A DNA stretch of 64,000 nt from Ectocarpus siliculosus. Lineage: Eukaryota > Sar > Phaeophyceae > Ectocarpales > Ectocarpaceae. The stretch lies in assembly GCA_000310025.1 (NCBI GenBank), contig FN648340.1:191135-255134 (forward strand), written 5' to 3'. The stretch's first letter is position 1; every line of letters starts with the position of its first letter. The notes below the pieces were generated by a model. It was given only the letters and a program-made list of their open reading frames with translations. It was not told the DNA's origin and searched no databases. A program made the translations under genes and the position numbers. This document shows, piece after piece, positions 38,742 through 63,350 of this stretch.

Positions 38742-41700
38742 AGGCCCACACGTTCAACATTTTCAAGATCGCGAGGACGCAGGATCGAAAAAGGGGCTGG
38801 CGCTCTTGTGACACTGGGCACTTCCCAACCGGAGGGATGTAGAACATTTGTCGGTGTCGCTTGGAGGATTGAAGGTAACCGGTAGATGAGGCAGGCTCGG
38901 AAACGGCTGGTGCCTTCGGGGATATCCGGATGGGGTTCGGAGATAGCCGAATATCAGTAGCGATATGTGATGCGGGAGGGGGGGTGCCGCACAGTTAGAA
39001 AGTTGGTCCCGAGGGCGTTTTTTTTTGCTGTCTCGCCTTGATTCGAGGTTGTTGTTTTGGGGCTGGTTGCTTGGGGTGGTGACGAGAGTAGGCTTGTTGC
39101 AAAGTTCTTCTTCGTCCCGCAAAATAATTAATTGGAGCTCGTGAATATGAGGGTGAGCCGCATTCTGCTTGTAACCGGTTGGGTTGCGTTGTTACAGGGG
39201 GCGCTCGCGCGGCACCAACCGCAACCCTGTTCTTGGGAGCGTCAGAATGTTCGACGCACGTATTTGTATATGTTACCGACCGCGTAAAGATGGTAATGTC
39301 TGATTAGTTTTTCTAGCTGGAAGGAGCTCTCAGGGATATTAAATTGGGTATGCATAGCCTTGCCGTGATTTATTTTCTGATATTGGTGTTGGTATTAAGC
39401 AGGCTGGCAAGTGAACAAGATGTCGTGCTCATGGGTAAGCCGTACAAGTGAAGACTGTTTCGAGGGAACACAGGTTAGATGCGTGAAAACGAAAGCTACG
39501 GCCTACCTAGGTACGAGAAGATGAGCACCACTCAAGAGCGGCACCGGACGAAACACGAGCCCTCACTTGCTGGTCGTGGAATTGTCCACAGCAGACTTGG
39601 TTGACGGGGCAGACATTTCTTTGGTGTGGCGTGCAAGTACGAGAGACGGGTCGGAAGGGTCTCCAGAACATAATTTATGGGTTTTCTACTGTATCCAGAC
39701 ACGAGTTGTTGCACCAACGAAGGAGGGCCTGCCAGCGACCATGAACGTGGATATGGAATACATGCAAAACAAAGGTGTATGAAATGATTGGTTCATACAA
39801 GCCGTACTCAATTATGGGCAGGTAGATGCACTGCCGGCATGCTAGATGTGGAGGAAGAAGACGTTGCGGCACTGAAACAAACTCTCTTCGTGTTTGGCAA
39901 AACAGGAGAAAATATGTTACTTGTTCCTGTCGGAAAGCGGAGGGTAAATCAATGCTCGTGTGGGCCTGACAGATGCATTGCTCCGGAGGGGTAAGAATAT
40001 GGAAATATACAGCAGTAGGGTAAGGAGTTCAATCCTCTTCATGTAGTTGTGAGGGTTGACAATAGGCAAATGCAAGACAATAAGGGAACCAAGCGGTTGT
40101 AGCAGCAGAAGGTTATTGCCAGCCGGACTGAAGGCTGGCGTCTGGAGATTTTCCTTTCTTGGAAAGGCGAGGATCTGATTGGCCAAGGCGATCGGGGGGT
40201 GTTTACGTTGCATGGATTTTCTCAGTGGCGGGAAGGCCGCGGTTGCTGTATGAAATGTCGACGTGTCAATATACTTGGGTCTGGCCAACGCACGAACGAT
40301 CATTTCTTTGTTATCTCCCAGCATTTCTTCGGCCTTACGGGGTGCGCATACATGTTGCCTGCCTCAAATGACGGGGGGGCATTCTTCGAGGAAGAAAAAT
40401 ACGACTTTCTCGAAGTATTGAACAAATGCCCAACAACTGACAGTTCGCCAATTGTTTGGCACGTTTCGGACTTCTCGCTGTGGTCCAGAACAACATGTCG
40501 TTGCACAATGGGGCAAGCGTGCCGAATGCATGAAATTCGACAGTGTCCGGCCAATACGAAGAAAGCAACAAGGCTCCCGTAACTGCGCATGGAGACCCAC
40601 GAAAAAAAGTTGCCGGTCAACCTCGCAAGCTTGTAGGTTATGGTGCGCTCAACAGCCTTTCGTATAGCATGCCGTTTAAGCATCGAGACTTCTTTGATTA
40701 CGGGGAGAGCAAACGAAACACCTAGAGGGATATCTCACAGGAACTACGTGGACCAAAATGTAGAAATTATAGTGTTGACACCCTCGGCCACTTCGGTAAA
40801 CAGAGAAACTTCCCTACGCACGGCGATCGGGAAAAAAAGAGCTCATCATGCTGCTCATCGCCAAAAGCAACAAACAATACTTCATAGCACCTCTTTCAGA
40901 CACCCCCGGACGAGTGCCTCTACCTCAAGTTTGTGAACAGACCAGCTCGTTGGCACTCATCTGTAGCCAGAGTGAAGCCGTGCGTTGGTAAACTGACGAC
41001 ACCATGCGTCCAGACAACGCCACATAGCACACACCAACCCCTCTCTCCCACTGTCCAGGCTGTGGATCGCCTCAGAACTCGAAACGCCGGCCCGCTCAGC
41101 GGCAGCATGCCATTTTTTTTACGGTATTTTGCAGCAAATGTCACGTTGCCTTACGATTCCAACACTTGTTCTTGTTGAAGCTCTCCACAATACGCGAGTG
41201 GACTAACAAAGAGTAACACCAACCCTAACACAGTTCACGACAACGACCCGCCTCGCCCTCAGTGTTTTTCACATGTATGTTGGGTCAGCCTAGCTTCTAA
41301 CCCACCCGTCACAGCCAGGCACCACGAGGTACACACAATAATTGTACAATATAATGGCTTGTCGAGCATCACTTTGCGGCCACTACTGACACAATCAGCA
41401 ACATGACATGCCCGGTGACACGCTTGAAAACAGAAACAAACGCGACTTCAACCCCGACGTGTTTTCAACCTCAGACAAATAACCACAAGAAAGAACACAA
41501 AAACAACCAGTTCATATCTGAGGTACGCAGGGTAACACGCTCAATATCTTGCGCAAATATGCACCGCTTGCTGTGATCATCAAGTCCCCTTCCTCCACGT
41601 CTGAATTTTGAACGATGAGGTAAAACCATTAAAATCGTGTTCGCTTGCCTTGATGGCACGTTTACCCTGAGTTCACCCTTTTTGCTGCCTACCGCACACA

Positions 41701-42004
41701 TAGTTGTCCATCGTCGGTGTACGGCAATTCACAACGTCTCGAAGGGTCGGTGCCAGGAAACAGATCGATCCAGCACGATGTCTACCCAACGAATCTTTCC
41801 ACGATGTTTGCACTGCTGCCCGCCACGCAGTACATGCCGCTTTCGAGCGTGTCGTCGCACGAAAAAGGAAGTCATGCAGTGGAGGGGATCGTCAACTCGA
41901 CGTGATTGGGTATCATTGAGTCCCTCGCTGATAACCGCGGGCTCGCCTTGCATGGAGACCACAACTGTACCCAATCCCGTACCCGTCTCCCCGTCCATGC
42001 CTTC
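38742..42004. other. Intergenic: 3' flank of NCAPD3 and 3' flank of FNIP unit 1
   Basis: No supported gene. The stretch 40180-41720 is alignable to 44570-46150 and partly to 54370-55400 (for example CACTGTCCAGGCTGTGG near 41048 and 45464). It is therefore the downstream flank duplicated with each FNIP unit, and its reading frames are not conserved between copies. 38742-40150 shows nothing recognisable. Confidence 0.6.
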
Positions 42005-42096
42005 TGTTGAGAAGCACGATGACCACTAGACTACTAGTCAGCCGAAGCACGATGACCACTAGACCGAGTAGTCTAGTGGTCATCGTGCTTCTCAAC
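42005..42096. repeat. Hairpin with doubled left arm
   Basis: GAAGCACGATGACCACTAGAC occurs twice in direct order (from 42011 and 42044) and once inverted (to about 42093). It lies at the left edge of the block duplicated across the N gap. Confidence 0.8.
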
Positions 42097-42590
42097 ACCT
42101 TCCCCGTTCTCCATACATGACCGAAAGCAGGGCCCGCACAACCGGGTACGTGCCCCTCGACAGATGTCAATGCAGACCACGTCCTTCACGAGTCACACAT
42201 TGATTGTAAGGAGGCCGGCCATACCATCCCGACGATAGACTGACTGGTTGAATTCGCGCCCAAACGAAAGCAGCTACAGGGAGGCCGGCCACGTGATATC
42301 GGTGATGGGCTGGTTGGATTTGTCACTAAGCGCTAGCTACTGCAGGAAGGCCGGTCACGCGACTCCGACGATGGGTTGGTTGGATTTGTCACCAAACGCT
42401 AGCTGCTGCAGGAAGGCCGGCCACGCGACTCCGACGATAGGTTGGTTGAAATTATCCTCAAAAGATAGCTGCTGCAGGAAGGCCGGCCAGATGACCCCGA
42501 CGATGGGTTGGTTGAAAAACAATCCAAACGATAGCCGCTGCAGGGAGACAGCCCACACCGCTCCGACGATGGGTTGGTTGACTTCGGATC

Positions 42591-42690
42591 NNNNNNNNNN
42601 NNNNNNNNNNNNNNNNNNNNNNNNNNNNNNNNNNNNNNNNNNNNNNNNNNNNNNNNNNNNNNNNNNNNNNNNNNNNNNNNNNNNNNNNNN
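42591..42690. other. Assembly gap (100 N)
   Basis: Exactly 100 undetermined bases, a conventional scaffold spacer, interrupt a 66-bp repeat array. Confidence 0.99.
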
Positions 42691-42866
42691 ACTTTCTTTG
42701 CGCCCGATGTATGAGGAGAAAGAGTCTATGAGATTTCGCAAAGCAAGCCGATGTACCTCTTGTACCGATGCAATTTCCGGGCAAGACAGCGCTGATCACA
42801 GGGATGGCAACCCTGGGGGGACGTGTTCGTGGCTGCAAAGCTACATCGGACACGGGCATTGACTTT

Positions 42867-42926
42867 TGTTGAGAAGCACGATGACCACTAGACCGAGTAG
42901 TCTAGTGGTCATCCTGCTTCTCAACA
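42867..42926. repeat. 27-bp-arm hairpin
   Basis: Arms 42867-42893 and 42900-42926 pair with one mismatch around loop CGAGTA. It is the counterpart of the 42005-42096 structure at the start of the right-hand duplicate. Confidence 0.85.
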
Positions 42927-45900
42927 CCTTCCCCGTTCTCCATACATGACCGAAAGCAGGGCCCGCACAACCGGGTACGTGCCCCTCGACAGATGTCAAT
43001 GCAGACCACGTCCTTCACGAGTCACACATTGATTGTAAGGAGGCCGGCCATACCATCCCGACGATAGACTGACTGGTTGAATTCGCGCCCAAACGAAAGC
43101 AGCTACAGGGAGGCCGGCCACGTGATATCGGTGATGGGCTGGTTGGATTTGTCACTAAGCGCTAGCTACTGCAGGAAGGCCGGTCACGCGACTCCGACGA
43201 TGGGTTGGTTGGATTTGTCACCAAACGCTAGCTGCTGCAGGAAGGCCGGCCACGCGACTCCGACGATAGGTTGGTTGAAATTATCCTCAAAAGATAGCTG
43301 CTGCAGGAAGGCCGGCCAGATGACCCCGACGATGGGTTGGTTGAAATACAATCCAAACGATAGCCGCTGCAGGGAGACAGCCCACACCGCTCCGACGATG
43401 GGTTGGTTGACTTCGGATCGAAACACTAGCTGCTGCAGGGAGGCCGGCCACCACGGCTCCGACGATGGGCTGGTTGAAGTCGGATCGAAACGATAGCTGG
43501 TGCAGGGAGGCCGGCCACATGGCTCCGACGACAGGCTGGTTGAACTCAGGACCAAACGATAGCTACTCGGCGGCCGGCCACACGGCTCCAACGATGGGCT
43601 GGTTGAAAATAAATCCAAACGATAGCCGCTGTAGGGAGACAGGCCACACCGCTCCGACGATGGGTTGGTTGAATGAACCACCAAACGATAGCCGCTGCAG
43701 TGCGGCCGGCCACACCACTCCGACGAACGATCGGCTGGTTGAATAAACCATTAAACGATAGCTGTCGCAGGGACACCGGCCATGAAACTGAGTTCACGGA
43801 CCTGTCCGAAGAAAACGACAACCGTCTGAGCTTTTGAAACCAACCCACGCGCCCTCTAGGCTTGCCGCGAGATGAAAGTTCCGTTGACCGACGATTTTCT
43901 GACCCTGGGTGCAGCTCAGTGGTAGGTCTCGGCAGTAGAATCTCCATCGGAAGTGCCCACGTCCAACCAAAAGCCAGCACAGCCGGGACCAGACTCATGA
44001 TGCAAACTTCTCGACAGCGCTTTTGTCGGGTGTGGTGTTTGATTTGCGGGGAGACCACAAGCTAGGAGGCGCTTGTCGATCGATGCGCACGTGCAAGGTC
44101 GGGACACTTCTGCACGCCCCACAAAACTCCAGCGACACAAGCTGTAGCTCCAGCGTAGATGCATACCAACGCTTGTCCTGTCCATCGCAAGCCTGGTTCA
44201 ACGCGACCATGAAGGCGTCCAGGCAGTCCACCCGCCCTGCGATACATATGAGGACGGTAGATATACACGTAGGAATGCACCAACAAAAGGTTGTGGAACT
44301 TGGGACTGTTTCTTGCCGCGCGAATGAGTTGAGTGAGTGAAGTCAGAGACAAGGAAGACGGGAGGAGAGGAGGTGGGTCGGCCGAGTCGATACTAACAAA
44401 ATCTTCCAAAAAGCAGCCTTTTATCATCATACGCAACTGTACCCGGGGATTTGAGCAACAACTGGCCATGTCTGTTCATGTTCCAGACCCCTCCATTGAG
44501 CATGAGTTGGAATGGGCATTCGTACCATCCGGTGAGCCATTCTACAAGCGTGTTTGCAAGAAAAAATATTCGTCGGGTGTCTCGGAGCAATCATTCACCG
44601 AACGATTGAAACTGATCCCAGAGCAGTTCTCGCTCTTTTACGGGGTGCGCGCGCATGTTGCCTGCCTCGAGTGACGGGGGGAACGTTCTGCGAAGGAAAA
44701 TATGAAAAAAGTATACATAGAATAGTCCGAGTCCATGTAGGAAGTAGCTGCCCACCATTGATTGGCACGTTTCGAACTTCTCGCACTGACTGGTTGAGAA
44801 TACCTATACCTTCGTAGGATGGTAAGCGTGCCGTTTCACACGATGGCGTATAAGCTTTCCCACTCTTTCTTCTTTTTCTCATGCGATGTGTAGTGATATC
44901 AAACGGAATCATGCCAGACATCACGGCAAACGCGATAGGCGCCAGTGTAATTGAACAGAGACTCGTGAAAGAATGCTGTAGGACAACCTCGGGAGCCGGT
45001 AGATTCATTGGTGTACTCAACCGCCTTTCGCTAAACATGCCGGTCGAGCATCGAACCTTCTTTGATTGCAGGCCGAGCAAAAGACAGAGACGTCTAAGTG
45101 ATAGGAGTATGCACAAGCCTTACGGGAACATCGAAAATCACTGGGCAGGACATGGCGTTGAAACCCCCGGCGAACGATGTACTGCTCGAGAGAGAAATGC
45201 TCCCACCCACGGCGATCAGGAGAAAATGAGCTCATCCTGCTGCCCATAAAAAAACATCGAATGGAAGAATAGTGAGCATCCCTATATCAGACAACCCCAG
45301 ACCAAAGCTTCTACGCCAAGTTTCTGAACGAACCAGCTGGTTGGGATTCACGCGTAAAAAGCAAATTCATCCAGTTGGGCAATAACGACAACACAACGTC
45401 TGGAGATCGTTGGAACAAGAGTACGCAAGCACTACCACGCAGCGCTGGTCTCCCACCCCACACTGTCCAGGCTGTGGCTCGCCCCATGATTCGAAGCGCC
45501 GACTAATTCAACGGTAGGATATCGAGATAGAAGGCATTCTGGAACAGCGACTACAGTGCGTTGCCTTTCGATTCCAACCGTTTCTCTTGTTGGAACCCTC
45601 CATAAAAACGCGAGCGGATACACCACGTGGTAGCAATGACGAAAAAACGACAACGACCCACAGCTCCTCACTGTTTTCGTATATTTTGGGTCAACCTAGC
45701 TTCAAACCATTGGATACGTCTCGTCGGACAGGCGTTCAATCGTCCATTCTCATTTCGTATCATTTGGCGGTCGCTAGACGTACCCAGCAACCTTACAAAA
45801 GTCCAGTGATATGCTTGAAAGACAGAAACGCGCCTTCAATCCCCCCCCCCCCACCCTCTGACGCGTTTTGTCCCTTAGAGAAACAACCACGAGAAGCGAC

Positions 45901-46419
45901 ACAGAAACCCAGTTTATCTGGGGTGTACAGGGCACCACCGCGATCTACAACGTGCGGTGCAACGTGCAGCTTACGACAACCACCTCTTGTAGAAAGCACA
46001 CCTTTCCTACCGGGGTCGTTAAAGCTGCGTGCGCTTGCCTTGTTGATGTTCTACCTTGAGGTATCCCTCTTCCCGTACACCACACACATACTCGTCGGTG
46101 AATGGCAATTCCCAATGTCTGGAAGGCTCGGCGCCAGGAAACTGATCTATCTGGCACAACGGCTAAACAAGTAATCATGCGATGTGTGCACAGTTGGCCC
46201 CCAAGCAGCGGCTTTCGAGCATGTCGTGGCACAAAGGGAAGAAGTCGTGAAAGGGAGGAATCACAAACTCGACACCATTGGGCACCATAGGCTTCTCCGA
46301 TAACAGCGGTGGGCATGGAGAAAAAACGAAAATGGACCTCGTCGTGTTCGTAACCACTGTCCTGTTCGCCTGGCCGCAACCAGGACCCACACAACCTGGG
46401 GCGTGTGCGTCGATACCTG

Positions 46420-48123
46420 TCATAGTAGACTAAGTCCACCACGAGTCGCAACGCGTAAAGATGCCGGCCATTCTACTGTAGCTAAGCATTGTTTGAAACA
46501 GGATTGCCCATATGCATTCCCGAATGATAGCCATTGCAGCGAGGCCGGCCACGCGGCCCCAACAATAGGCTGGTCGAATTCTAAACCAAACGCTAGCCGC
46601 TTCAGGGAGAATGGCCACAAAACGTCCGTGATGGGCTGGTTAAAGTCATCTCCAAACGATAGCTGCTGCAGTGAGGCCGGCCACACGACGCCGATGATGG
46701 GCTGGTTGAAGACACGTCCAAACGACAGCTGCTGCAGTGAGTTCGGCCACACGATTCCGACGACGGGCTGGTTGAAGATACATCCAAAGGATAGCTGCCG
46801 CAGGGAAGCTGACCACACGACTCCGACGATTGGCTGGTTGAATGTTGCCCCAAATGATAGCTGCTGCAGGGAGGCCGGCCACACAACACCGATGATGGGC
46901 TGGTTGAATTCGTATCCAAACGATAGCCGTTGCAGGGAGGCCGGCCACACAACACCGATGATTGGCTGGTTAAACTCAACCCCAAACGATACCTGCTGCA
47001 GGGAGGCCGGCCACATGGCTTCGACGATGGGCTGATTGAAGGAAAATCCAAACGATAGCTGCTTTATGGAGACCGTCCACACGACCTCGGCGATGGGCTG
47101 GTTGAATTCTGAACTAAACGACAGCCGTTGAAGGGAGGTCGGCCACACGACCCCGATAATGGGCTGGTCGAAGTGAAACCCAAATGATAGCAGTTGCAGG
47201 GAGGCCGGCCACACAGCTCCGACGATGGGCTGGTTGAAGTAACGACCAAACGATAGCTGCTGCAGGGAGGCTGGCCAAACGCCCCCGACAATGGTCTGGT
47301 CAAATTGATCCCCAAATGACAGCTGCTGCAGGGAGGCCGGCCAAACGGCTCCGACGATGGGCTGGTTGAAGCAATGTCCAAATGATAGCTGCTTCAGGGA
47401 GACCGGCCAAACGACTTCGACGATGGGCTGGTCGAAGTTATCCCCAAACGAGAGTTGCTGCAGGAAGACCGGCCACGCAACTCCGACGATGGCCTGCGTG
47501 AAAGTATCTCCAAACGATAGCTGCCGCAAGGAGGCAGGCCACGATGCTAGGTTCACCGGCATATCCAAATTAAAGACCAGCCGTTTGAGCTTTTGAGGCC
47601 AAACCATACATGCTAGGCTTGCTGCAGATGAAGGTCCCGCTAGCTGTCGGCAGTCTGATTCTGACCACAGTCCAATGGCAGACTTCTCTATCAGCACCTC
47701 CATTGGAAGTGCCCACGCCAAACCAAAAGCTTGCACAGCCGGCACGCGACTCGACATGAAAACCCCTCGATGGCGCTTGCTGGGTGTGGTATGATATTCG
47801 CGAGGAATCCACAAGCTAGGAGGCGTTTGTCGATGAACACGCACGTGCAAAGTCTGCACACTTCTGCATGCCCCGCAAAATCCCAGCGACCCAAGCTGGA
47901 GCTCCCGCGTAGACGCATACCAACGCTTTCCTGGTCCTTCGCAAGCCTGGTTCAATGCGACAATGAAGGCGTCCAGGCACTTGCTCCTCCCTGTGATATT
48001 GGATGGAAAATAAACATGTAGGAACGCACACAAAACGTCATGTGAGCCTTGGGTTAGTGTCGTGCTGCGCGACTGAGTGGATAAAGACGGACACGAGAAA
48101 GAAGGCAGGAGAGTAAGTAGGTT
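46420..48123 (-). CDS. FNIP-repeat protein, unit 2 (open; main exon, 567 codons)
   Basis: A single open frame runs from an apparent 3' splice site (TTGCAG before 48123) to a stop at 46420. No ATG occurs in frame before residue ~132, so a short upstream exon probably supplies the start. Residues ~50-180 are a unique leader (CLDAFIVALNQACEG, CGACRSVQTLHVRV, AFGLAWALPMEV). Then about 16 units of exactly 22 residues follow, each F-[ND]-Q-P-I ... W-P-x-S-L-x-x-L-S-F-G, matching the FNIP repeat of Dictyostelium and giant-virus proteins, a leucine-rich-repeat-like solenoid. A role in protein binding is inferred. No kinase, F-box, signal peptide or membrane segment is visible. The C-terminus is WPASLRVATRGG. 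Confidence 0.75.
   Translation of the reverse strand, partial: NLLTLLPSFSCPSLSTQSRSTTLTQGSHDVLCAFLHVYFPSNITGRSKCLDAFIVALNQACEGPGKRWYASTRELQLGSLGFCGACRSVQTLHVRVHRQTPPSLWIPREYHTTPSKRHRGVFMSSRVPAVQAFGLAWALPMEVLIEKSAIGLWSESDCRQLAGPSSAASLACMVWPQKLKRLVFNLDMPVNLASWPASLRQLSFGDTFTQAIVGVAWPVFLQQLSFGDNFDQPIVEVVWPVSLKQLSFGHCFNQPIVGAVWPASLQQLSFGDQFDQTIVGGVWPASLQQLSFGRYFNQPIVGAVWPASLQLLSFGFHFDQPIIGVVWPTSLQRLSFSSEFNQPIAEVVWTVSIKQLSFGFSFNQPIVEAMWPASLQQVSFGVEFNQPIIGVVWPASLQRLSFGYEFNQPIIGVVWPASLQQLSFGATFNQPIVGVVWSASLRQLSFGCIFNQPVVGIVWPNSLQQLSFGRVFNQPIIGVVWPASLQQLSFGDDFNQPITDVLWPFSLKRLAFGLEFDQPIVGAAWPASLQWLSFGNAYGQSCFKQCLATVEWPASLRVATRGGLSLL
46520..47560 (-). repeat. 66-bp tandem array of FNIP unit 2
   Basis: GGGCTGGTT recurs on the plus strand every 66 bases (for example 46633 and 46699), with in-phase variation confined to the same codons. 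The hypervariable positions are the two residues before F-N-Q-P and the two after P-I. Confidence 0.9.
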
Positions 48124-48199
48124 CTGCAAGTCAACCAATAATCAGAAGCTGCCAAAGTGTGCACGCGTCCGTGTGCCTGATATACTTGCGTATTGTCGT

Positions 48200-49870
48200 G
48201 TGCCGTTTAGTGCATTGCGACCCATATGATGGTATGCGCTTCCGTTGGGACGTGGTGACCAAAGATGGATGCACGGGAAAGGCACTACACGACTGACAAC
48301 GCCGAAACAAAGAGAAGGCAGATGATAAAAGATGAATCGTGATGTCAAATTGACACCGCTGCGATGAGACGACACTCAAAGGTAGAGCATCTATGCATAC
48401 CACGGCAAAATTAGTCTCTGCCCAAAGACAGAAAAAAATCGCTGGAACCCACTTTTTGGGTTTGCTGGGAATATGTTTGCGATATGGACAACCGTGAGCC
48501 ACATCTTTTTCTCGCAAACAGTCAAAGAATAAGCTGAGGAGCAGCGAAGCTGCAACTTTCTTCCCCCTTCAACCCAGGGGAAAAACAAAGGTCCAAATAT
48601 CGATATAGGCCTCTTACAACTCGTGCAGGGTGCCCTCCGCCGAATATACGCGAGGCCAAATTGGCCCTCCTTTTCGACCAGAACAAGATCTATGGACCAC
48701 CGATTGACCTTCTGTTGCCTTTTCACGAGGAAGTATAATAGTACACCATTCGTCACCTCTTGGTCGCGCTATTTGATACCAACTTGGTCGAGTATCCCGG
48801 GACAGAACGATGCAGCCCCGGGAGTTGTCAAGTAAGGGGCAATATAAAGCGAATATTCCACACGCACCATTCAAACCTGGAGAAACAGAGGTAGCACTCA
48901 GCGAAAATAAGTAACTCAACACTGCGCTGGGAAGAGCGAGACAGAAAGGGAAATCACAGCATCAACAGCAGACCTGCTGCCCTCTCTATGGCAACACAAC
49001 GTAGATCTCCAGGATGCGCTCTTCTTGCTGTTGGGATATCTCATGATGATGGGTGAAATAAGACCGATTGGAGTATTGTTGCTGATGCTGCTGCAGCAAC
49101 GGCAGCAGAGAGTGAAGGCGAGGCGTTAGTGTTGTTGATGCAGTCGGTACAGAGACTCAGAACAGTCGTTACGGTGTCCCTCGCCGGACAATAAATTGTA
49201 GGGCGGGGGGGTGCGAGAAGCAAACAAACGACGCCCTCCAGCAAAAGCGTAACAAGAGACATGAGACTGGATTAATGATACGAGATGGTACACGCGAGAA
49301 ATCGGTTGGGGCTCAGTTGATTGCGCTGTGTTCCTGTCCCTTTCCAAGTGAATGCGCGTCCGCCACCACATATATTGTTCATTTATGACGGCGTGTGTGC
49401 GTGTTCCTCACCCGTCGGTGGATATTGGGGTGAAGCGGATGCGCCAGTCGTGAACATGCTTCCTGATGAATCTTCATCGGGGGCATGACAGGAGACCCAT
49501 GATTTCGTCGGAACAAGGCCCATCTGTTTTTTTTTTTTTTTTCATGCTTGTACTGTAGACTACATTGTACAGCTGGCTCTACTGCTGTAGTACTCTGTAG
49601 CATTGGTCAATCGTCAGAGCGGGCGGACAGCACGAAGAGAATACGCTTTTCAGCTCGATCCCCGTCTTCCCAACCTCGCAACCTCAACCTCAACATGTTG
49701 AAATTGGTCTCCCGCCTGCCCCATCCCTCACCTGGGGCCGCGCATGCCGGAACGAGATGCCGGCGAACATGAGGAATGTACAGCAAAAAGAGCAGGATAC
49801 CACAACTATTACTGCTGTATACATGCACACTACCCAGCCCATGTCTTGCCTGTACTGCTGCAGTTTCAAT
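48200..49870. other. Region upstream of FNIP unit 2, no gene recognised
   Basis: Several open frames of 60-120 codons exist on the minus strand (for example 48391-48756) but none has a recognisable domain or a counterpart upstream of the other FNIP units. A missing first exon of unit 2 should lie here. A 16-base T run sits near 49526. Confidence 0.4.
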
Positions 49871-49872
49871 TG

Positions 49873-50170
49873 CGAATCCCCTCTCTTTGTTGCAGCCTCA
49901 ATCCAACCCAATCCCGCTCACCTTCGGTATTCATGGCAGCCGGTGTTCACCAACAAGCAGTGTGCATCCGAGCGTCTAGTGCGCATAGAGCACGAGCAGA
50001 CGGCGGAGCCCCCAAGCAAAGGTCCCGGTTCGCGACCGCAAGAACCGGTTCCTACAGTTGTTGTTGTTGTTGTTGTCTTCACATTAAAAACCGTTCCGAT
50101 CTCTCTCTACCCAGTACCTTCGTATGTCCGTACTGATCCAACACTCGACGCGGTCGATTCCCGTGGTCAC
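49873..50170 (+). repeat. Interspersed repeat family A/B, copy 1
   Basis: 49873-50050 (CCTCAATCCAACCCAA ... CGGTTCGCGACCG) matches 59720-59930. 50055-50170, starting with a TTG run and GTCTTCACATTAAAAA, matches 59125-59240. An A/G-rich tract follows in both places (50400-50560; 59262-59480). Confidence 0.65.
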
Positions 50171-50720
50171 AGGTTAACTTACCCTAAAAAGGTACACTCA
50201 CATAAACTGGCCCCGAGGGGTCCGCAAGCAATAGAAATCAACGACAGATATTCTGGGATCCTCCACTCCCTTTTCGCGCTATGCGAGGTATCAACTGAGA
50301 CTAGCAGTCACTATCTATCATGGGCCGGAGAGAAAGAGGTACACCCCCTTGGTTCAATCTTGGTACTTCACAACGCAAGCAGAGACAAGGCCATCTGGCA
50401 CAGAAAAAGAGAGAAAAAAGAGAGAGAAAAAAAATGAAAAAAAAGAAAAAATAAGGAGAAAAAATAAAAATGGAAACCGTAAGGAGAAGAGAAAATAAAT
50501 GAAAATAAAATGAAAAAGGGCGAGGACAAAGAGGGACCAGGCCGAAAATAACAGGAAGTATGAGGCAGAACAAGGCACACGGTGGAGAGACCACTAACGA
50601 ACAAGCAAACACGCAAACATGGCCACCAACCAGCGATACATTGTAATGGTACGAAATCACTACAACTGGGGGGTTGGTGCAATGGTGCAGCGTTGGGGGG
50701 GGGAATTGGCGAAAAGAAAT

Positions 50721-51590
50721 TCAATCTGGCACGTGTCGTGCCACTCGGTCCGTCTCTTCTCGTTTGCTTTCTTCCCTGGCCGTCTCGTCCGTCTCCTGCC
50801 CCCCTCCCGCCCCATTGGTTGTTGGCTTGTGGTTTCGTTTGAGCGCTCGTTGTCGGCTGGCCTCTTCTTCCTTCTCGTGCCAGGAGGTCATGAACCTCTC
50901 AGCTCCCTGCAGCACCGCCGCATGCCAGGGTACTCCCCCCTCCACCTTCGCGGCTTCCGCCCACCTTAACTTCGGTGCCGTGTCTTTCGGTACGGGAATT
51001 CCGAGACAACTTGGGTCGGTTTTCGTAGATCCGTGGTCGGCCCCGAATGCCTTCAGGTCGTCGAGCACACACTTCGGCCAGTTCTGTTCCTGTCCCCCCC
51101 TACGTGGCTTCTCCCCCCCCGCCAGCTCGCCGAGCATCAGTCGTTTCGGGAGTCGCCCGTCCGGCTGCCTTGCCAGTGCTCCCGCGAACAGTAGGCGTCG
51201 TTGTCGGATCGTGGCTTCAACGCTCTGGCATTCGACCCTCTTCAGCGTCTGGGCGTACGAGAGCTGCCGGTAGGTGTCTTTCTTGCGCTTGTACCCGATA
51301 ACTCGAAGGAGCAGTCGGTGGTGTGTCGACCGCAGCGTCTGATAGTGGCCGCTGAGTGGTGACCATGTCATGCAGCCGTACAGCAGTGCCTCCATCGCCT
51401 CCGCCTGGAGGAGGCGGATCTTGAGTCGGAATGGCGCTTTCGGTCTGTCGAAGAGCTCCTGGCCACAGTACATGGTTCTCCGACCTGGCCCGACGGCCGA
51501 CGGCCCCCCTGCCCCTTACCCCTGCCCCCGCTCCCCCATGCCCGTGGTTCGTGCTGGACCTGATCTTCTTGATCTGGCATTGTGGCATCG
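50721..51590 (-). mobile_element. LINE fragment, 3' end of reverse transcriptase ORF
   Basis: A 250-codon open frame (51473-50721) contains LLQAEAMEALLYGCMTW, HHRLLLRVIGYKR, SYAQTLKRVECQSVE and RQRRLLFAGALAR. This is the characteristic post-RT region of RTE/Jockey-type non-LTR retrotransposons. The RT core and endonuclease are missing, so the copy is 5'-truncated. It lies outside the host genes. Confidence 0.8.
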
Positions 51591-51729
51591 CTGATCGTCG
51601 ACTCGCCGACTTGCCGGCTCGCCGACTCGCTTGCTGCCTCTCTCTGTTCTACCCGTGTGTATTATCCAGCTGGCGTCACCAACGGGTTGGCACCAGACTC
51701 GCTACGGGCGTATGGAATGGCTAGATCTG

Positions 51730-52290
51730 ACGTGTTTGCAAGTGCGCAATGTGCATCACGCCTTGTATCCTCCGCACTTCCTACCGAGACCCTTTGCAGT
51801 ATCGCCCCCTTTCAATCGCAGACCCTCCTTGCCCGCGAGAGGTTTGACGACACCGGTCGGTGCCCTCATGCTGCTTCTATTGCACAAGGTGATGTTGTTG
51901 GTCGTCCGGTAGGAGTATAATTCAAAGGGCAAAACCGCCAGTCCTGGTCTGCTATTATTTATTAAGGAAGTGGCGCTCCTACCTCATCGCGTGGTTTCCA
52001 CCGGCACCCCCCCGCATGTTCGCTTTGTCCGCAGAAGCGGCGGCTTCAAGTCGCCGGTGGTGGCGCTAGTGACGGCGGTGGCGGTGGAAGTAGCGGAGGA
52101 AAAAATCACGTGAACTGCAATTGCCGGTCGGTTGGCATGTCGCTTCTGGTATCCCACGCGGACAACCACGACGACGTTCAAGGATGATCGGCGTCGCAGG
52201 GCACACCATCCAGGGGAGCATGGCCTTGCTCGATGTCTAAACATGAACTCTCCTGGTGGTGCTTGGAATATGACGAGGTCCCGAATCTCA
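51730..52290 (+). repeat. Interspersed repeat family C, copy 1
   Basis: It aligns with 63560-64000 along most of its length (AGGAAGT.CGCTCC, then TCGCTTC, CTTGCTCGATRT, GGTGGYGCTTGGAA, CCGAATCTCACC at the end) and with 52640-52890 over the middle. No coding potential is evident. Confidence 0.65.
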
Positions 52291-52639
52291 CCAACACGAG
52301 GTGCATTGACCAGACCTATGCTTCCTGTAGGCGGACTGTATAGTATGTTACACGTGATAATCTTGATCCTAACCTCGCGCTCGCATACGCCTGGCGTGCA
52401 CCGCACAAAGATTCGCATGATCACTACGTTTCGGCATGGGTGGACTGCTTTCCACAATATTCGCGAGCAGGGGTTGGGTGGGGGGCACCATGCTAGGGTC
52501 TGTTGATACATTCCAACGACACTGACAGAGAGAGGGAGACTTGAGTGGAATCTGCGAATAATTACTAGTGTTCCTCTTCGAGCCGTGTGGTTAGCTTCGT
52601 TAGTGAATGGCTATTGATGTTCAAGAAGAGACCCGCAGG

Positions 52640-52890
52640 AAACATTAACATTCAGGAAGTATCGCTCCGTACCCATCACTTTTTTTCCACGCACACCTCC
52701 CCCTCACCTCGCCTTGATTGTTTTTCCCGTCCGCAGAAGGAGAAGACGGCTACAAGTGGCCGGTGGCAGTGCTGGCGACAAAAATAGCGAAAAAAGAGCG
52801 TTGCCTGATCTGAAATTGCTAACTCGCTGGCGTGGCACTTCTGGCATACCACGGGTACGTGGTACACCCCGACGAGGGCGCTGGAGCGAG
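52640..52890 (+). repeat. Interspersed repeat family C, copy 2 (partial)
   Basis: It shares AGGAAGTATCGCTCCGT, a TCCGCAGAAG block and a TGGCGTGGCACTTCTGG block with the copies at 51730 and 63560, and is diverged and shorter. Confidence 0.55.
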
Positions 52891-52999
52891 CAGTTAGGGC
52901 AGAGCAGCGCTCAGGCGCGAGTGGTGAGTGTGGCCTTTCTCTCTAGAAGTGTGTTGTTGTTGAGACAGTCGTGCCTGTTCAAGACTACAGTAACAGCGA

Positions 53000-54350
53000 C
53001 CATTTGCTGGCAAGGAGCATGTGCGGGCTCTAGCGGTCGAGTTGGCGGTGCTGGCTTAATTCCAACATGTGCGCCATGGGTTTTGGACAGAATGACTTCA
53101 CCATTCTCACCGAAAAATGCATACTCGTTGAAGAGCATAGTTTCTCTGTCTTCTGCTGTTTGTTCCAGATTTTCATTCTTTTGGACGCTAAGCACAACAA
53201 AGGTCTGGCATGATGTGACTGTCAAACACAAAAAACTGCTGCAGCAGGAGTCGTCATGGGGAATATTACAAAGGCGAGCAACCTGCTAAACAGAGTAGTC
53301 CGGAGTAGGATCTCAATGCGGGTGTAATCGATGGTCGGTTGCCGTAAGTATGCAGGTCTAGGCATGGATCGGCGACACGGCGCGGGTCAGGATCTTGGCT
53401 CAAGGTGTACAGAAAAAAATCGGGTTGAGGTATGTAATTGATGTTTGTTTGCACAGGTATTTTATTCGCTTCGCACAGAGTCCCGGATGGGGTGGGCGGT
53501 ATTTGTAGCGGGAGATTGCTGTACCACGGGAGCTTGTATCATTGGCTCCAATGCTGTTCTTTGGCACCGTAATGTGCTATTGGAGTTTTGGCAGGGGGGT
53601 GCGTTCTAAACACCCCATGTCGCCGCTGTTATTTCTTCAGAATCGCACAGATCGGAATCATCGCACGGGGTGTGCGTTATTTTGTCGGGTCAGGAAATGT
53701 TTTTTTCCGGATAGGTAACGGAATCTTGGCACGTACCGGCGTCGGACCATCGGGCAGCACATGGTGTTGACGCCCTCGGTGGTTTTTTCAAACGAGAACA
53801 ATGTTCCTACTGGCGGCCATCGGGGAGTGAATCAACGTATGCTGCCCACCGTAACCATCAATTGAGAGTGCCATATCTCTCTCACAAACCCTCGAGAAAC
53901 GCCCCCACCCCAAATTTCAGCGGACCGTCGTATACACTCTCCACCGTTGGAAAATTTTTGCGGTCGCCGGTTTTAAACAATTTTTTGGGTTGTACATAGT
54001 TGGAGGTAGGCACGGATCCAAATGACCTAGCAGGTTTAGCCCTCAGTCTACACCACGACGCTGAGCCTAACAGGCCTAACTCACCCCTAATCCCTACTAA
54101 CCCTAGCCGTAGCCCACACCCCGATGTTTTGGTTGGTGTGCATAGTGGGTAGGCCTAGATCGCTGTGCCGAGCTACTGGAGCGCGCTTCGTGCCCGCCCA
54201 ACTCTAGCGTAGTTACGCCTCGCGAATTTGAGCACAAACCAGCTGATCGACCGCTGTATGCATAGAAAGAAAAAATCGTCAAGATTGAGGCCATTCGTTG
54301 GCTAGAACACGACACGACAACTCCTAGAAAACCCTGCAGCAATCGTACGA
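53000..54350. other. No gene seen
   Basis: Short open frames only. AT/GC composition is mixed, with a few A-rich spots. I see no repeat family, RNA gene or domain signal. Confidence 0.4.
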
Positions 54351-54729
54351 GCAACCGCGCACTCTTGGTGAAACACCTTTGGTGAAAGACGGTCGCCCCT
54401 GTCCCGCACTGTCCAGAGTGTCATTCACCTCAGAGATAGAAACGACTTATAACCGCTTCTTTGCAACAAATCTTATGTTGCCTGACGAATCCGAAGCTTG
54501 TTCTTGTTGCCGCTCTGCGAGAAAACGCGAACGGTCCAACCGCAAGTAACACCCGCCCAAACACAACCCACGACAACGATAGAAAGACACGACAGACAAC
54601 GACCTGCCTCCTCCCCGACATATTTCGATAGCTTTTTTGAGTCTAGCTTCAAATCCTTCGTTACAGCCTGGCATCATCGAGGTGACATGAATCTAAAGAC
54701 AATGAATGTCTCATCGGAGAGACCTTGTT

Positions 54730-55064
54730 CGCTCTGATGGCGTGGCGTACACCATACTTCTGTCGCTAGACACAACCATCAACATGATACACGCGCGGTG
54801 TCATGCTTGAAAATAGAAACGCGCCTTCAACGTCCTCGCCCTCACGCACACGCCCGCTGGTCCGCTTTGTCCCAAAGACAAAAACTACATACCTTGTTCA
54901 TTCTCATGGCGTGGTTTGCACCACACTTCTGTCGCTAGATACAACCATCAACATGATACATGCCCAGTGTAACGCTGAGAAACAGAAAAGCGCCTTCAAC
55001 GTCCTCGCCCTCACGCACACGCCCGCTGTTCCGCTTCGTCCTTCAGAAAAAGCAAACACAAGAA
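54730..55064 (+). repeat. 169-bp tandem duplication
   Basis: CGCCTTCAACGTCCTCGCC starts at 54822 and again at 54991, and similarity extends on both sides (CTTCTGTCGCTAGA, AACCATCAACATGATACA). It is in the flank downstream of FNIP unit 3. Confidence 0.8.
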
Positions 55065-55751
55065 ACGGCACACAACCTCAAGTCCCTCCGTAGCATATAC
55101 TGGGCAGCGCGGTCTACATGCTGAGCTACAACCCAACACACGGCGGCCATCACCTTGAAGAATGCATACCCCTCCCAAGCAAACGTCTGAGGTGGAATGA
55201 CCGGGGGCATGAGTGATAACAGCTGGGTTCGCTTTCACTCATGGCGCGTGTACCCTCAGTTAACCCTGACGCCTCCCACACTGCATCTCTTCTCCATCTC
55301 AGCCTCGAAGGCTTCGTGCCAGCAAAATGATCTTTCCAACACAACGCCTAGCCGAGCAGTCCTCCGCGACGTTGTACTGCTACCTGCCAAGTAACTGATA
55401 CTGCTTTCGAGCGTGTCGTGAAACAAAGGGCACAAGTTGTGAGGTGGTGGGGGTCGCCAACCCGACACGATTGGGCATCATCTCCTTGCTGACAACGGTG
55501 GCCTTGCCTTGCATGGAGATCAAAATTGTGCCTCATCCGTCTTCCTAACCATTCCTTCCCTGTTCTACCTTGCCCAAAGCAAACACGCGCAACCGGGGAG
55601 CGTTCCTCGACAATTTTCATAACAGACCATACTACTGTACGTCCGTCTGGAATCACTCTTCGTAACGCAGTAGGCCATACATCACTTCGGCCAACGATTC
55701 GCCAACCCCATTCCCGAATCATAGATGCTGCAGTGAGGGCGGCCACACGGC

Positions 55752-57119
55752 TCAGACGAAATCTCCAAACCATATATGTTGCAGGGAGGCCGGCCAAACG
55801 ACTTCGACGATCGGCTGGTTGAAGTCATAACTCAACGATATCTCTTGCAGGGAGGACGGCCACACGACTCCGACGATGGGCTGGTTGAAGCAATAGCCGA
55901 ACGTTAGCTTCTGCAGGGAGGCCGGCCACACGACGTCAGCGACGGGCTGGTTGAATTCTGTACTAAATGATAGCTGCCGCAAGGAGACCGGCCACACGAC
56001 TCCAACAATGGGCTGATTGAAGCAATAACTAAGCCATAGCCGCTGCAGGGAGGCCGGCCACACGATTCCGACGATGGGCTGGTTGAAGAAATAACCAAAC
56101 GATAGCTGCTGAAGGGATGCAGGCCAAACGGCTCCGACGATGGGCTGGTCGAATCCATCCCCAAACGATAGCTGCTGCAGGGATGCAGGCCAAACGGCTC
56201 CGACGACGGGCTGGTTGAAGCCATCCCCAAACGATAGCTGCTGCAGGGAGGCCGGCCACATGACTTGGGCAATGGGCTGGTTGAAGTCAACTCCAAATGA
56301 TAGCTGCTACAGGGCGACCGGCCACACGACCTCGGCGATCGGCTGATCAAAGTCGTTCCCGAACGATAGCTGCTGCAGGGAGGCCGGCCACATGACTTGG
56401 GCAATGGGCTGGTTGAAGACAACTCCAAATGATAGCTGCTGCAGGGCGACCGGCCACACGACCTCGGCGATCGGCTGGTTAAAGTCGTTCCCGAACGATA
56501 GCTGCTGCAGGGAGACCGGCCACGACGCCGTGTTCACGCGCATATTCGAAGAAAATGCCAAGGACTTCAGGCTTTGAGGTCAGACCATCGATTATAGGCT
56601 TGCTGAAGATGACGGTGGCGTTCGCCGACGATATTTGGATCCTGACCGCAGCTCGAGCGCAGAACTCTGCAGCACAACCTCCATCGGAAGTGCCCAAGTC
56701 CAACCAAAAGCCAGTACAGCCGGCACACGACTCGAGATGTAAACCTCTCGACAGCGCTTGTTGGGTGTGGGGTGTGATTTGCGGGGAGACCACAAGCTAA
56801 GGGGCGTTTGCCGATCGACACGCACGTGCAAGGTCGGGACACTTCTGCACGCCCCGCAAAACGCCATCGACACAAGCTGTAGCTCCAGTGTAGACGCATA
56901 CCAACGCATATCCTGTCCATCGCAAGCCTGGTTCAATGCGACGAGGAAGGCGTCCAGGCACTCGCTCCCTCCTGAGATAGTGAATGGCAGATGTACAGAC
57001 ATGTAGGATGCAACCACCTGTGTTGAAGGTCTTGGGACAGTTTCTTGCCGCGCGATTGGGTGGTGCAAATTGGAGTCAGGGTAGAAGGAAGGAGAGATTG
57101 TCCTTGCCGTTGCCAACAA
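55752..57119 (-). pseudogene. FNIP-repeat gene, unit 3 (decayed)
   Basis: The leader (CLDAFLVALNQACDG, CGACRSVPTLHVRV, AFGWTWALPMEV) and about 11 units of 22 residues are collinear with the intact unit. Two stops lie in the leader-array linker (TAA at 56592-56594, TGA at 56580-56582). One stop (CAG to TAG) lies in the array near 56308. The frame is otherwise maintained, so decay looks recent. Splicing out the linker stops is conceivable, but the array stop would remain. Confidence 0.7.
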
Positions 57120-62556: not shown

Positions 62557-63350
62557 GTCGGAACAAACAACAGACCATTCCGACGCGAGAGCGGTGAAGA
62601 GAGAAGGCAAAAAGTTAAAGACAACGTGGATACACACACACACACACACACACCGAGAGGAGAGAGAGAGAGAATACGGTACCAAGGTGGTGATAGGAGG
62701 TGAGTGCACACCGTGTGAAGGTGTTCGAAGAAAAAAAAAATGTACAGCAGTAGCACACGGAATCGGAACAAACAACAGACCATTACGACGCGAGAGCGGT
62801 CAAGAGAGAAAGAAAATGAAAAGAGAATGTGGATAGACAGACCGTCATAGACATGGAGAGACGGAGGAACGGAGGAGAAGGAGGCACACACAGAGAGGGC
62901 CGTACTTCGAGTGGAATGCGTGGTATGATGGAACAGAGAGGGGTGACAGCAGCCGGCGAGAGAGATAAACGCGGAAGATAAAAGTGGAAAGTCCACCAAA
63001 GTGCCAAATTTCCAGAGGAAACGCTGCTCTGTGAGAGCCCGCAGTACCGCACGGCATCGGCACAAACAACAGACCATTCCGACGCGAGAGCGGTCAAGAG
63101 AGAAGGCGAAAATGAAAAGAGAATGTGGATAGACAGACCGTCAGAGACATATAGAGACGGAGGAACGGAGGAGAAGGAGGCATACACAGAGGAGAGGGCC
63201 GTACTTCGAGTGGAATGCGTGGTATGATGGTACAGAGCGGGGTGACAGCAGCAGGCGAGAGAGATAAAAGCGGAAGACAAAAGTGGAAAGTCCACCAAAG
63301 TGCCAAATTTCCAGAGGAAATGCTGCTCTGTGAGAGCCCGAGAAGACCGG
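62557..63350 (+). repeat. Tandem repeat, about 2.7 copies of a ~295-bp unit
   Basis: ACAAACAACAGACCATT occurs at 62563, 62768 and 63062. The second and third units are highly similar for about 290 bases; the first is shortened and holds a CA dinucleotide run near 62633-62652. Confidence 0.85.

What the first reader, a model, noticed from the sequence alone, without database searches (positions are those of the whole stretch)
40180..57119. FNIP-repeat gene family: one open gene between two decayed siblings
Three minus-strand units share leader, 66-bp array and downstream flank. Repeat number and order differ between units, and the variable residues sit at fixed positions in each 22-residue unit, as expected of a recombining recognition solenoid. 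This recalls the shuffled repeat receptors proposed for brown algal immunity, but with FNIP rather than LRR or TPR units, and may be an undescribed diversifying family.
Basis: partly seen in the sequence, partly recalled or inferred. Interest (0 to 1): 0.75.

Follow-up and report, generated by a model that had tools for sequence, protein, structure and literature searches.

The report
Algal repeat proteins with two hypervariable residues
A seaweed-like genome carries more than a hundred related genes for coil-shaped repeat proteins in which just two amino acids per repeat change very fast, as would be expected if each protein recognises a different partner.

Summary
One open FNIP-repeat gene (46420-47991, minus; 15 repeats and a cap) lies between two decayed relatives that share leader, 66-bp array and flanks. 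One detail is an artefact: part of unit 1 is duplicated across an N gap.

The leader matches 119 loci in this genome; 74 of 119 are open for 300 aa or more. FNIP expansions in brown algae, and high variability of positions 8-9 in CroV and Dictyostelium, are in print, so the family is not new.

What my searches did not find in print is direct evidence of selection on those two residues. In the young paralogs L045/L046, positions 8-9 differ at 0.37 per nonsynonymous site, against 0.095 synonymous and 0.041 nonsynonymous elsewhere in the same repeats. An independent six-repeat duplication agrees. Some changes replace nearly the whole box; three such boxes are unique in the assembly.

Best reading: a germline-diversified recognition family, fed by point mutation, short exchanges between repeats and repeat gain/loss, under selection for new surfaces. 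An immune role is inferred. Targeted mutagenesis of the box is possible but not shown. Arrays are not exon-shuffled; ROC-COR and NB-ARC were not found at these loci.

The parts
46420..47991 (-). Open FNIP gene, last coding exon: leader, 15 repeats, degenerate last repeat, C-terminal cap, stop
47530..47991 (-). Conserved leader (CLDAF...NQAC...RWYAST.ELQL), 154 residues, no Pfam match
46540..47529 (-). Array of 15 in-register 22-residue FNIP/FGxxFN repeats; the 15 residue pairs at positions 8-9 are all different
46423..46539 (-). Degenerate last repeat and C-terminal cap WPASLRVATRGGLSLL, like the cap in other open members
47991..47992 (-). Putative 3' splice site AG before the leader, present in 21 of 22 loci aligned (not L047); first exon not found
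45647..46450 (-). Downstream flank (reaching into the end of the cap) shared in pieces with units 1 and 3 and with other family loci
55785..56972 (-). Unit 3, decayed: leader from 56972, array to about 55785, several stops
43032..44237 (-). Unit 1, decayed: leader from 44237 with a stop after 80 residues; repeats in three frames
42051..42690 (.). Gap of 100 N (42591-42690) preceded by a near-identical second copy of 42880-43419: probable assembly redundancy

Best explanation
The unit is one member of a large, germline-diversified family of FNIP (FGxxFN) leucine-rich-repeat proteins in what is most likely a brown alga. Shown: a conserved leader and C-terminal cap enclose a single-exon array (6 to 21 repeats counted in the sampled open arrays, some cut by the fetched stretch); framework residues are conserved; [quoted passage not shown] Inferred: these residues form a modular binding surface and selection favours new surfaces. 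New variants are supplied by point mutation in the box, short exchanges between repeats, and gain or loss of repeats; failed copies decay, as units 1 and 3 have. The most likely role is recognition of diverse or fast-changing partners, such as viruses or microbes. How binding is signalled is not known.
For: Family: 127 leader matches from 141 candidates, merged to 119 loci on 40 contigs; 74 of 119 open for at least 300 aa without a stop in the leader match. Fold: profile match to Crov588 (E 1.9e-215) and Crov539 (6.7e-73) in the PDB; the AlphaFold2 model's best Foldseek hit is 6nyr, E 7e-15. Variability: 3.83/3.96 bits at positions 8/9, 2.54 or less elsewhere, in 326 repeats. Selection: L045 against L046, 18 in-register repeats, positions 8-9 Nd/N 32.0/86.6; elsewhere (codon 7 left out) Sd/S 22.8/241.1 and Nd/N 32.2/784.9 (Fisher on rounded counts 4.6e-8 and 5e-18); upstream noncoding 23 of 706. 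Independent case: L037 six-repeat duplication, box 8 of 42 against flank 12 of 354, p 4e-4, all five changed codons 8-9 nonsynonymous. Exchange: the box of L046 repeat 12 has a twin in L042 repeat 9 over 25 identical bases. Leader constraint: median dN/dS 0.46 in the 263 leader pairs (of 24 leaders) with dS 0.2-1.5.
Against: Only one young paralog cluster and one internal duplication were compared in register. L042-L045 is weak against synonymous change (p 0.039). The three young pairs show no purifying selection on the leader (dN/dS 0.8-1.1). There is no expression, protein or ligand evidence, no first exon, and no domain that would signal. Three swapped boxes have no twin in the assembly in this sequence context, which short exchange alone does not explain.
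Confidence: 0.6

Rival explanations
1. Targeted mutagenesis: a dedicated process rewrites a box of about 7 bases (third base of Gly7 plus codons 8-9) while sparing the flanks; selection then sorts the products.
For: In L045-L046 the synonymous third base of Gly7 changed in 5 of 15 repeats against 16 of 251 other unchanged-residue codons (p 0.003), and transitions:transversions in the box are 14:22 against 42:23 in upstream, downstream and leader (p 0.02). Box changes are overdispersed (variance 4.11 against 1.57) and all six substitution classes occur. Three swapped boxes are unique genome-wide in this context.
Against: Rests on one paralog cluster with a handful of events. In the L037 duplication Gly7-3 changed in 0 of 6. 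Several boxes differ by single substitutions, and some have twins elsewhere. Box base composition is skewed at a wobble base (codon 8 third base T in 154 of 288), which random synthesis would not give.
Confidence: 0.15
2. Positive selection on ordinary point mutations alone; no special exchange or mutator.
For: Strong nonsynonymous excess at positions 8-9; several boxes differ by one base.
Against: Co-change of the synonymous Gly7-3, shifted transition:transversion ratio, and near-whole box replacement with unchanged flanks. Array synonymous divergence (0.095) exceeds leader dS (0.028), which points to exchange.
Confidence: 0.15
3. Relic of giant-virus or virophage FNIP genes, drifting after endogenisation, without a host function.
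For: FNIP genes are abundant in giant viruses (PMC9525666) and an FNIP pseudogene sits beside viral genes in Ectocarpus (PMC2373305 passages); 45 of 119 loci here fail the open-frame criterion.
Against: 74 of 119 loci keep long open frames, leader median dN/dS is 0.46, and fast change is confined to two residues. Leader and repeats found no confirmed relative in viral contigs; that collection may lack such viruses.
Confidence: 0.07
4. Structural or adhesive repeat family whose loop residues are merely unconstrained.
For: No ligand or signalling domain is known.
Against: Neutral loss of constraint gives nonsynonymous rates equal to synonymous; here 0.37 against 0.095.
Confidence: 0.03

Closest known systems
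CroV FGxxFN/FNIP proteins (Crov588, Crov539; PF05725)
   Same: Same 22-residue repeat, consensus most like the Crov539 class (FNQPI...WP); positions 8-9 reported as most variable (PMC9525666)
   Different: Here a conserved 154-residue leader of unknown fold and a SLRSVTR.G.SLL-type cap; selection at 8-9 measured on young paralogs
FNIP expansions of Saccharina and Ectocarpus
   Same: Probably the same kind of family; 121 proteins in S. japonica (PMC4421812), 104 sequences from Ectocarpus (printed 'Endocarpus', PMC9525666)
   Different: In the passages read I saw counts, kinship and repeat consensus, no leader, decay or selection analysis; kinship by leader not tested (no such sequences here)
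Brown-algal LRR-ROCO and NB-ARC-TPR candidate receptors
   Same: Large families with diversifying solenoids proposed as immune receptors
   Different: Those shuffle repeat-bearing exons and carry ROC-COR or NB-ARC (PMC11378527 passages); here the array is one exon and neither domain was found
Virophage FNIP genes EV1/EV2 of Cafeteria
   Same: The FNIP gene is the main difference between otherwise near-identical genomes (PMC10945749 passages)
   Different: Viral, single gene; mechanism of change not analysed in the passages seen
TAL effector repeat-variable diresidues (recalled)
   Same: Works like: two variable residues per otherwise constant repeat
   Different: Different fold; no evidence of a code or of nucleic-acid binding here

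Membership tests
FNIP / FGxxFN repeat family (PF05725) | Tandem 22-residue LxxLxFGxxFN...P repeats scoring over the curated cut-off | tested here: met
   230.4 bits against cut-off 21, 10 stretches
FNIP / FGxxFN repeat family (PF05725) | LRR-type solenoid | tested here: met
   By model only: ten-residue blocks of the array have pLDDT 59-89, pTM 0.63; best Foldseek hit 6nyr; leader mostly below 50
Mimivirid F-box-FNIP proteins | N-terminal F-box | tested here: inconclusive
   no F-box match in the open exon; the first exon is unknown
Brown-algal LRR-ROCO candidate receptors | ROC-COR domains | tested here: not met
   one COR-A match in the genome (C17:274385), not at a family locus
Brown-algal LRR-ROCO / NB-ARC-TPR receptors | Shuffled repeat-bearing exons | tested here: not met
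   arrays of up to 21 repeats in one uninterrupted frame
[quoted passage not shown]
   27 matches, none within 15 kb of a leader match (coordinates compared by eye)
Diversity-generating retroelement target | Variation confined to template adenines | tested here: inconclusive
   seven adjacent variable bases, all six pair classes, no uniform A excess; two independently randomised adenine sites could also give all classes
Diversity-generating retroelement target | Template repeat and dedicated reverse transcriptase nearby | not tested
   not searched

The most novel reading that the evidence does not exclude
A eukaryotic genome runs a sequence-specific diversification process that rewrites a bounded box of about 7 bases in each FNIP repeat, giving a combinatorial two-residues-per-repeat receptor repertoire without exon shuffling.
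Probability: 0.13. Interest if true: 0.93.

Novelty: new variant of a known kind. Interest (0 to 1): 0.6.

Why it matters
FNIP proteins are numerous in amoebae, giant viruses, virophages and brown algae, but their function is open. A family in which fast change is confined to two residues per repeat is what a repertoire of binding surfaces should look like, and it gives a ready readout: strain resequencing and ligand capture can be aimed at known residues. It would be a candidate recognition repertoire in brown algae beside the ROCO and NB-ARC-TPR genes, built by a different route.

Tried and rejected
All-pairs test: among repeat pairs with near-identical flanks, the synonymous Gly7-3 covaried with the box (for example 36 of 53 pairs outside the C6 cluster). 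I rejected it as evidence, because flanks are so constrained that unrelated repeats can look near-identical; only in-register paralogs are used. Intact-cassette circulation: identical codon 8-9 pairs on diverged flanks were not in excess (72 against 71.6 expected), while identical 7-mers were (43 against 22.4); left open.

First exon: upstream homology among loci looks noncoding, with stops in all frames. In 9 of 31 loci an in-frame ATG lies upstream before a stop, in 22 none. L047 is an exception: it lacks the AG at that place and its frame runs on upstream for 538 codons without a Pfam match over cut-off; unexplained.

Leader fold: the model from three window sequences has mean pLDDT 31, unusable. 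Viral relatives: four scans confirmed none; the scan used a wrongly spaced pattern and is void. A broad paper search on targeted hypermutation in eukaryotes (listing only) gave nothing on this family.

Unit 1 second array: rejected as a real duplication.

Full report
What is there. The window is G000:C49:191135-255134 of a 189-Mb unnamed assembly. It is most likely a brown alga: for the EsV_1_7_cys family 150 of 150 scored candidates match (880 candidates), and from recall that family is expanded in brown algae. The open unit is a frame of 572 aa (46420-48138, minus). Its conserved part starts at 47991, directly after an AG present in 21 of 22 loci aligned there (L047 lacks it), and 22 of 31 loci have no in-frame ATG upstream before a stop. 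A first exon therefore probably lies upstream; I did not find it. The exon holds a 154-residue leader, 15 canonical repeats, a degenerate last repeat and a cap.

Neighbours. Units 1 and 3 share leader, array and downstream flank and are decayed. Part of unit 1 appears twice around a 100-N gap, with 2 differences in 530 bases between 42061-42590 and its copy. One of the two differences falls in the second base of codon 9 of a repeat. If the copies are two alleles, that is a hint; it is one base.

Family. The leader finds 127 matches from 141 candidates at E 0.001 or less, merged by me to 119 loci on 40 contigs; 74 of 119 have an open frame of at least 300 aa and no stop inside the leader match; 39 neighbouring pairs lie within 50 kb. 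PF05725 gives 137 matches from 150 scored of 1539 candidates. The pattern TTTGG-N7-TTCAACCAGCC occurs 197 times; its reversed control 0 times. Counted repeats in sampled open arrays run from 6 to 21, partly limited by the fetched stretch. I fetched only part of the family: the repeat statistics rest on 24 loci that gave repeats, later 8 more loci, of which L035 gave none.

Where the variation is. In 326 repeats, positions 8 and 9 reach 3.83 and 3.96 bits; the next highest is 2.54. [quoted passage not shown] So that pattern as such is known.

Selection. Three paralogs on C6 (L042, L045, L046) are young: upstream noncoding differs at 22-26 of 706-712 sites and leader dS is 0.016-0.041. Their repeats largely stay in register. 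Between L045 and L046, positions 8-9 show 32.0/86.6 nonsynonymous, against 22.8/241.1 synonymous and 32.2/784.9 nonsynonymous elsewhere, codon 7 left out (on rounded counts p 4.6e-8 and 5e-18). Other variable positions (2, 3, 5, 15, 16, 18, 21) show 13.2/287.4, so the effect is confined to two residues. L042-L046 agrees (23.0/56.3 against 18.0/159.3); L042-L045 is weaker (10.5/56.3 against 12.5/159.7, p 0.039). These three pairs share history and are not independent. An independent case is L037, where six repeats are duplicated inside one gene: box 8 of 42, flank 12 of 354, p 4e-4, and all five changed codons at positions 8-9 are nonsynonymous.

How the box changes. Some boxes differ by one or two bases. 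Others are replaced almost entirely while the flank is nearly unchanged: one repeat position reads AGTGCGC, TTGTATC and GTATTCC in the three paralogs. In L045-L046 the synonymous third base of Gly7 changes in 5 of 15 repeats against 16 of 251 other codons with unchanged residue (p 0.003), transition:transversion is 14:22 in the box against 42:23 in upstream, downstream and leader (p 0.02), and box changes are overdispersed (4.11 against 1.57). This favours block changes over single substitutions alone. It does not tell templated from untemplated change. For templates: exact twins in other repeats exist for several boxes (L046 repeats 12, 14, 18 and 19), and array synonymous divergence (0.095) exceeds leader dS (0.028). 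Against: ACCTCGC, TTGTATC and AGTGCGC each occur once in the assembly in this context; of the three codon-swapped controls two occur 0 times and one once, at a place that is no leader locus, so uniqueness alone says little. In L037 Gly7-3 changed in 0 of 6. No test here was corrected for multiple looks.

Function. The array matches the solved Crov588 and Crov539 by profile and by model. The leader has no Pfam match and no usable model. Its median dN/dS of 0.46 over 263 pairs of 24 leaders speaks for constraint, though the young pairs are near 1. Recognition of varied partners is the best inference; that it serves immunity is a further step without direct evidence.

Known or new. Brown-algal FNIP expansions are in print (PMC4421812, PMC9525666; passages read, and the Discussion of the second), as is an FNIP pseudogene beside viral genes in Ectocarpus (PMC2373305, passages). 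In the held library, searches for FNIP and related terms listed no paper whose title or abstract start showed a selection analysis or a conserved leader in this family; I read passages of five papers, no whole text. The 2012 exon-shuffling paper is not held. The ROCO paper's main text does not mention FNIP. The array is not exon-shuffled, and COR (1 match) and NB-ARC (27 matches) lie elsewhere.

Verdict. Observation confirmed; interpretation partly right. A new variant of a known kind, with a well-supported selective focus on two residues per repeat and an open question about how the box is rewritten.

Noticed in passing
42051-42690: Near-identical sequence on both sides of an N gap; one of two differences in 530 bases lies in a hypervariable codon, so the copies may be alleles.
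   Followed up: partly
54722-55041: 169-bp unit in 1.9 copies in the downstream flank of unit 3; Tandem Repeats Finder lists none in the flank of unit 2.
   Followed up: no
50721-51473: 250-aa minus-strand frame that looks (from recall) like the C-terminal part of a non-LTR retrotransposon protein; no Pfam match.
   Followed up: no
62747-63340: 299-bp unit in two copies, 93% matching.
   Followed up: no
L042/L045/L046 (C6 3.12-3.17 Mb): One repeat has a longer loop, and most of that loop differs between the three paralogs.
   Followed up: partly
L047:1399-3012: Frame of the FNIP gene runs on upstream for 538 codons, and the AG seen in the other aligned loci is missing there; no domain match.
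   Followed up: partly
46420-48138: PF11158 (DUF2938) scores over its cut-off on the FNIP array; probably a composition-driven match.
   Followed up: no
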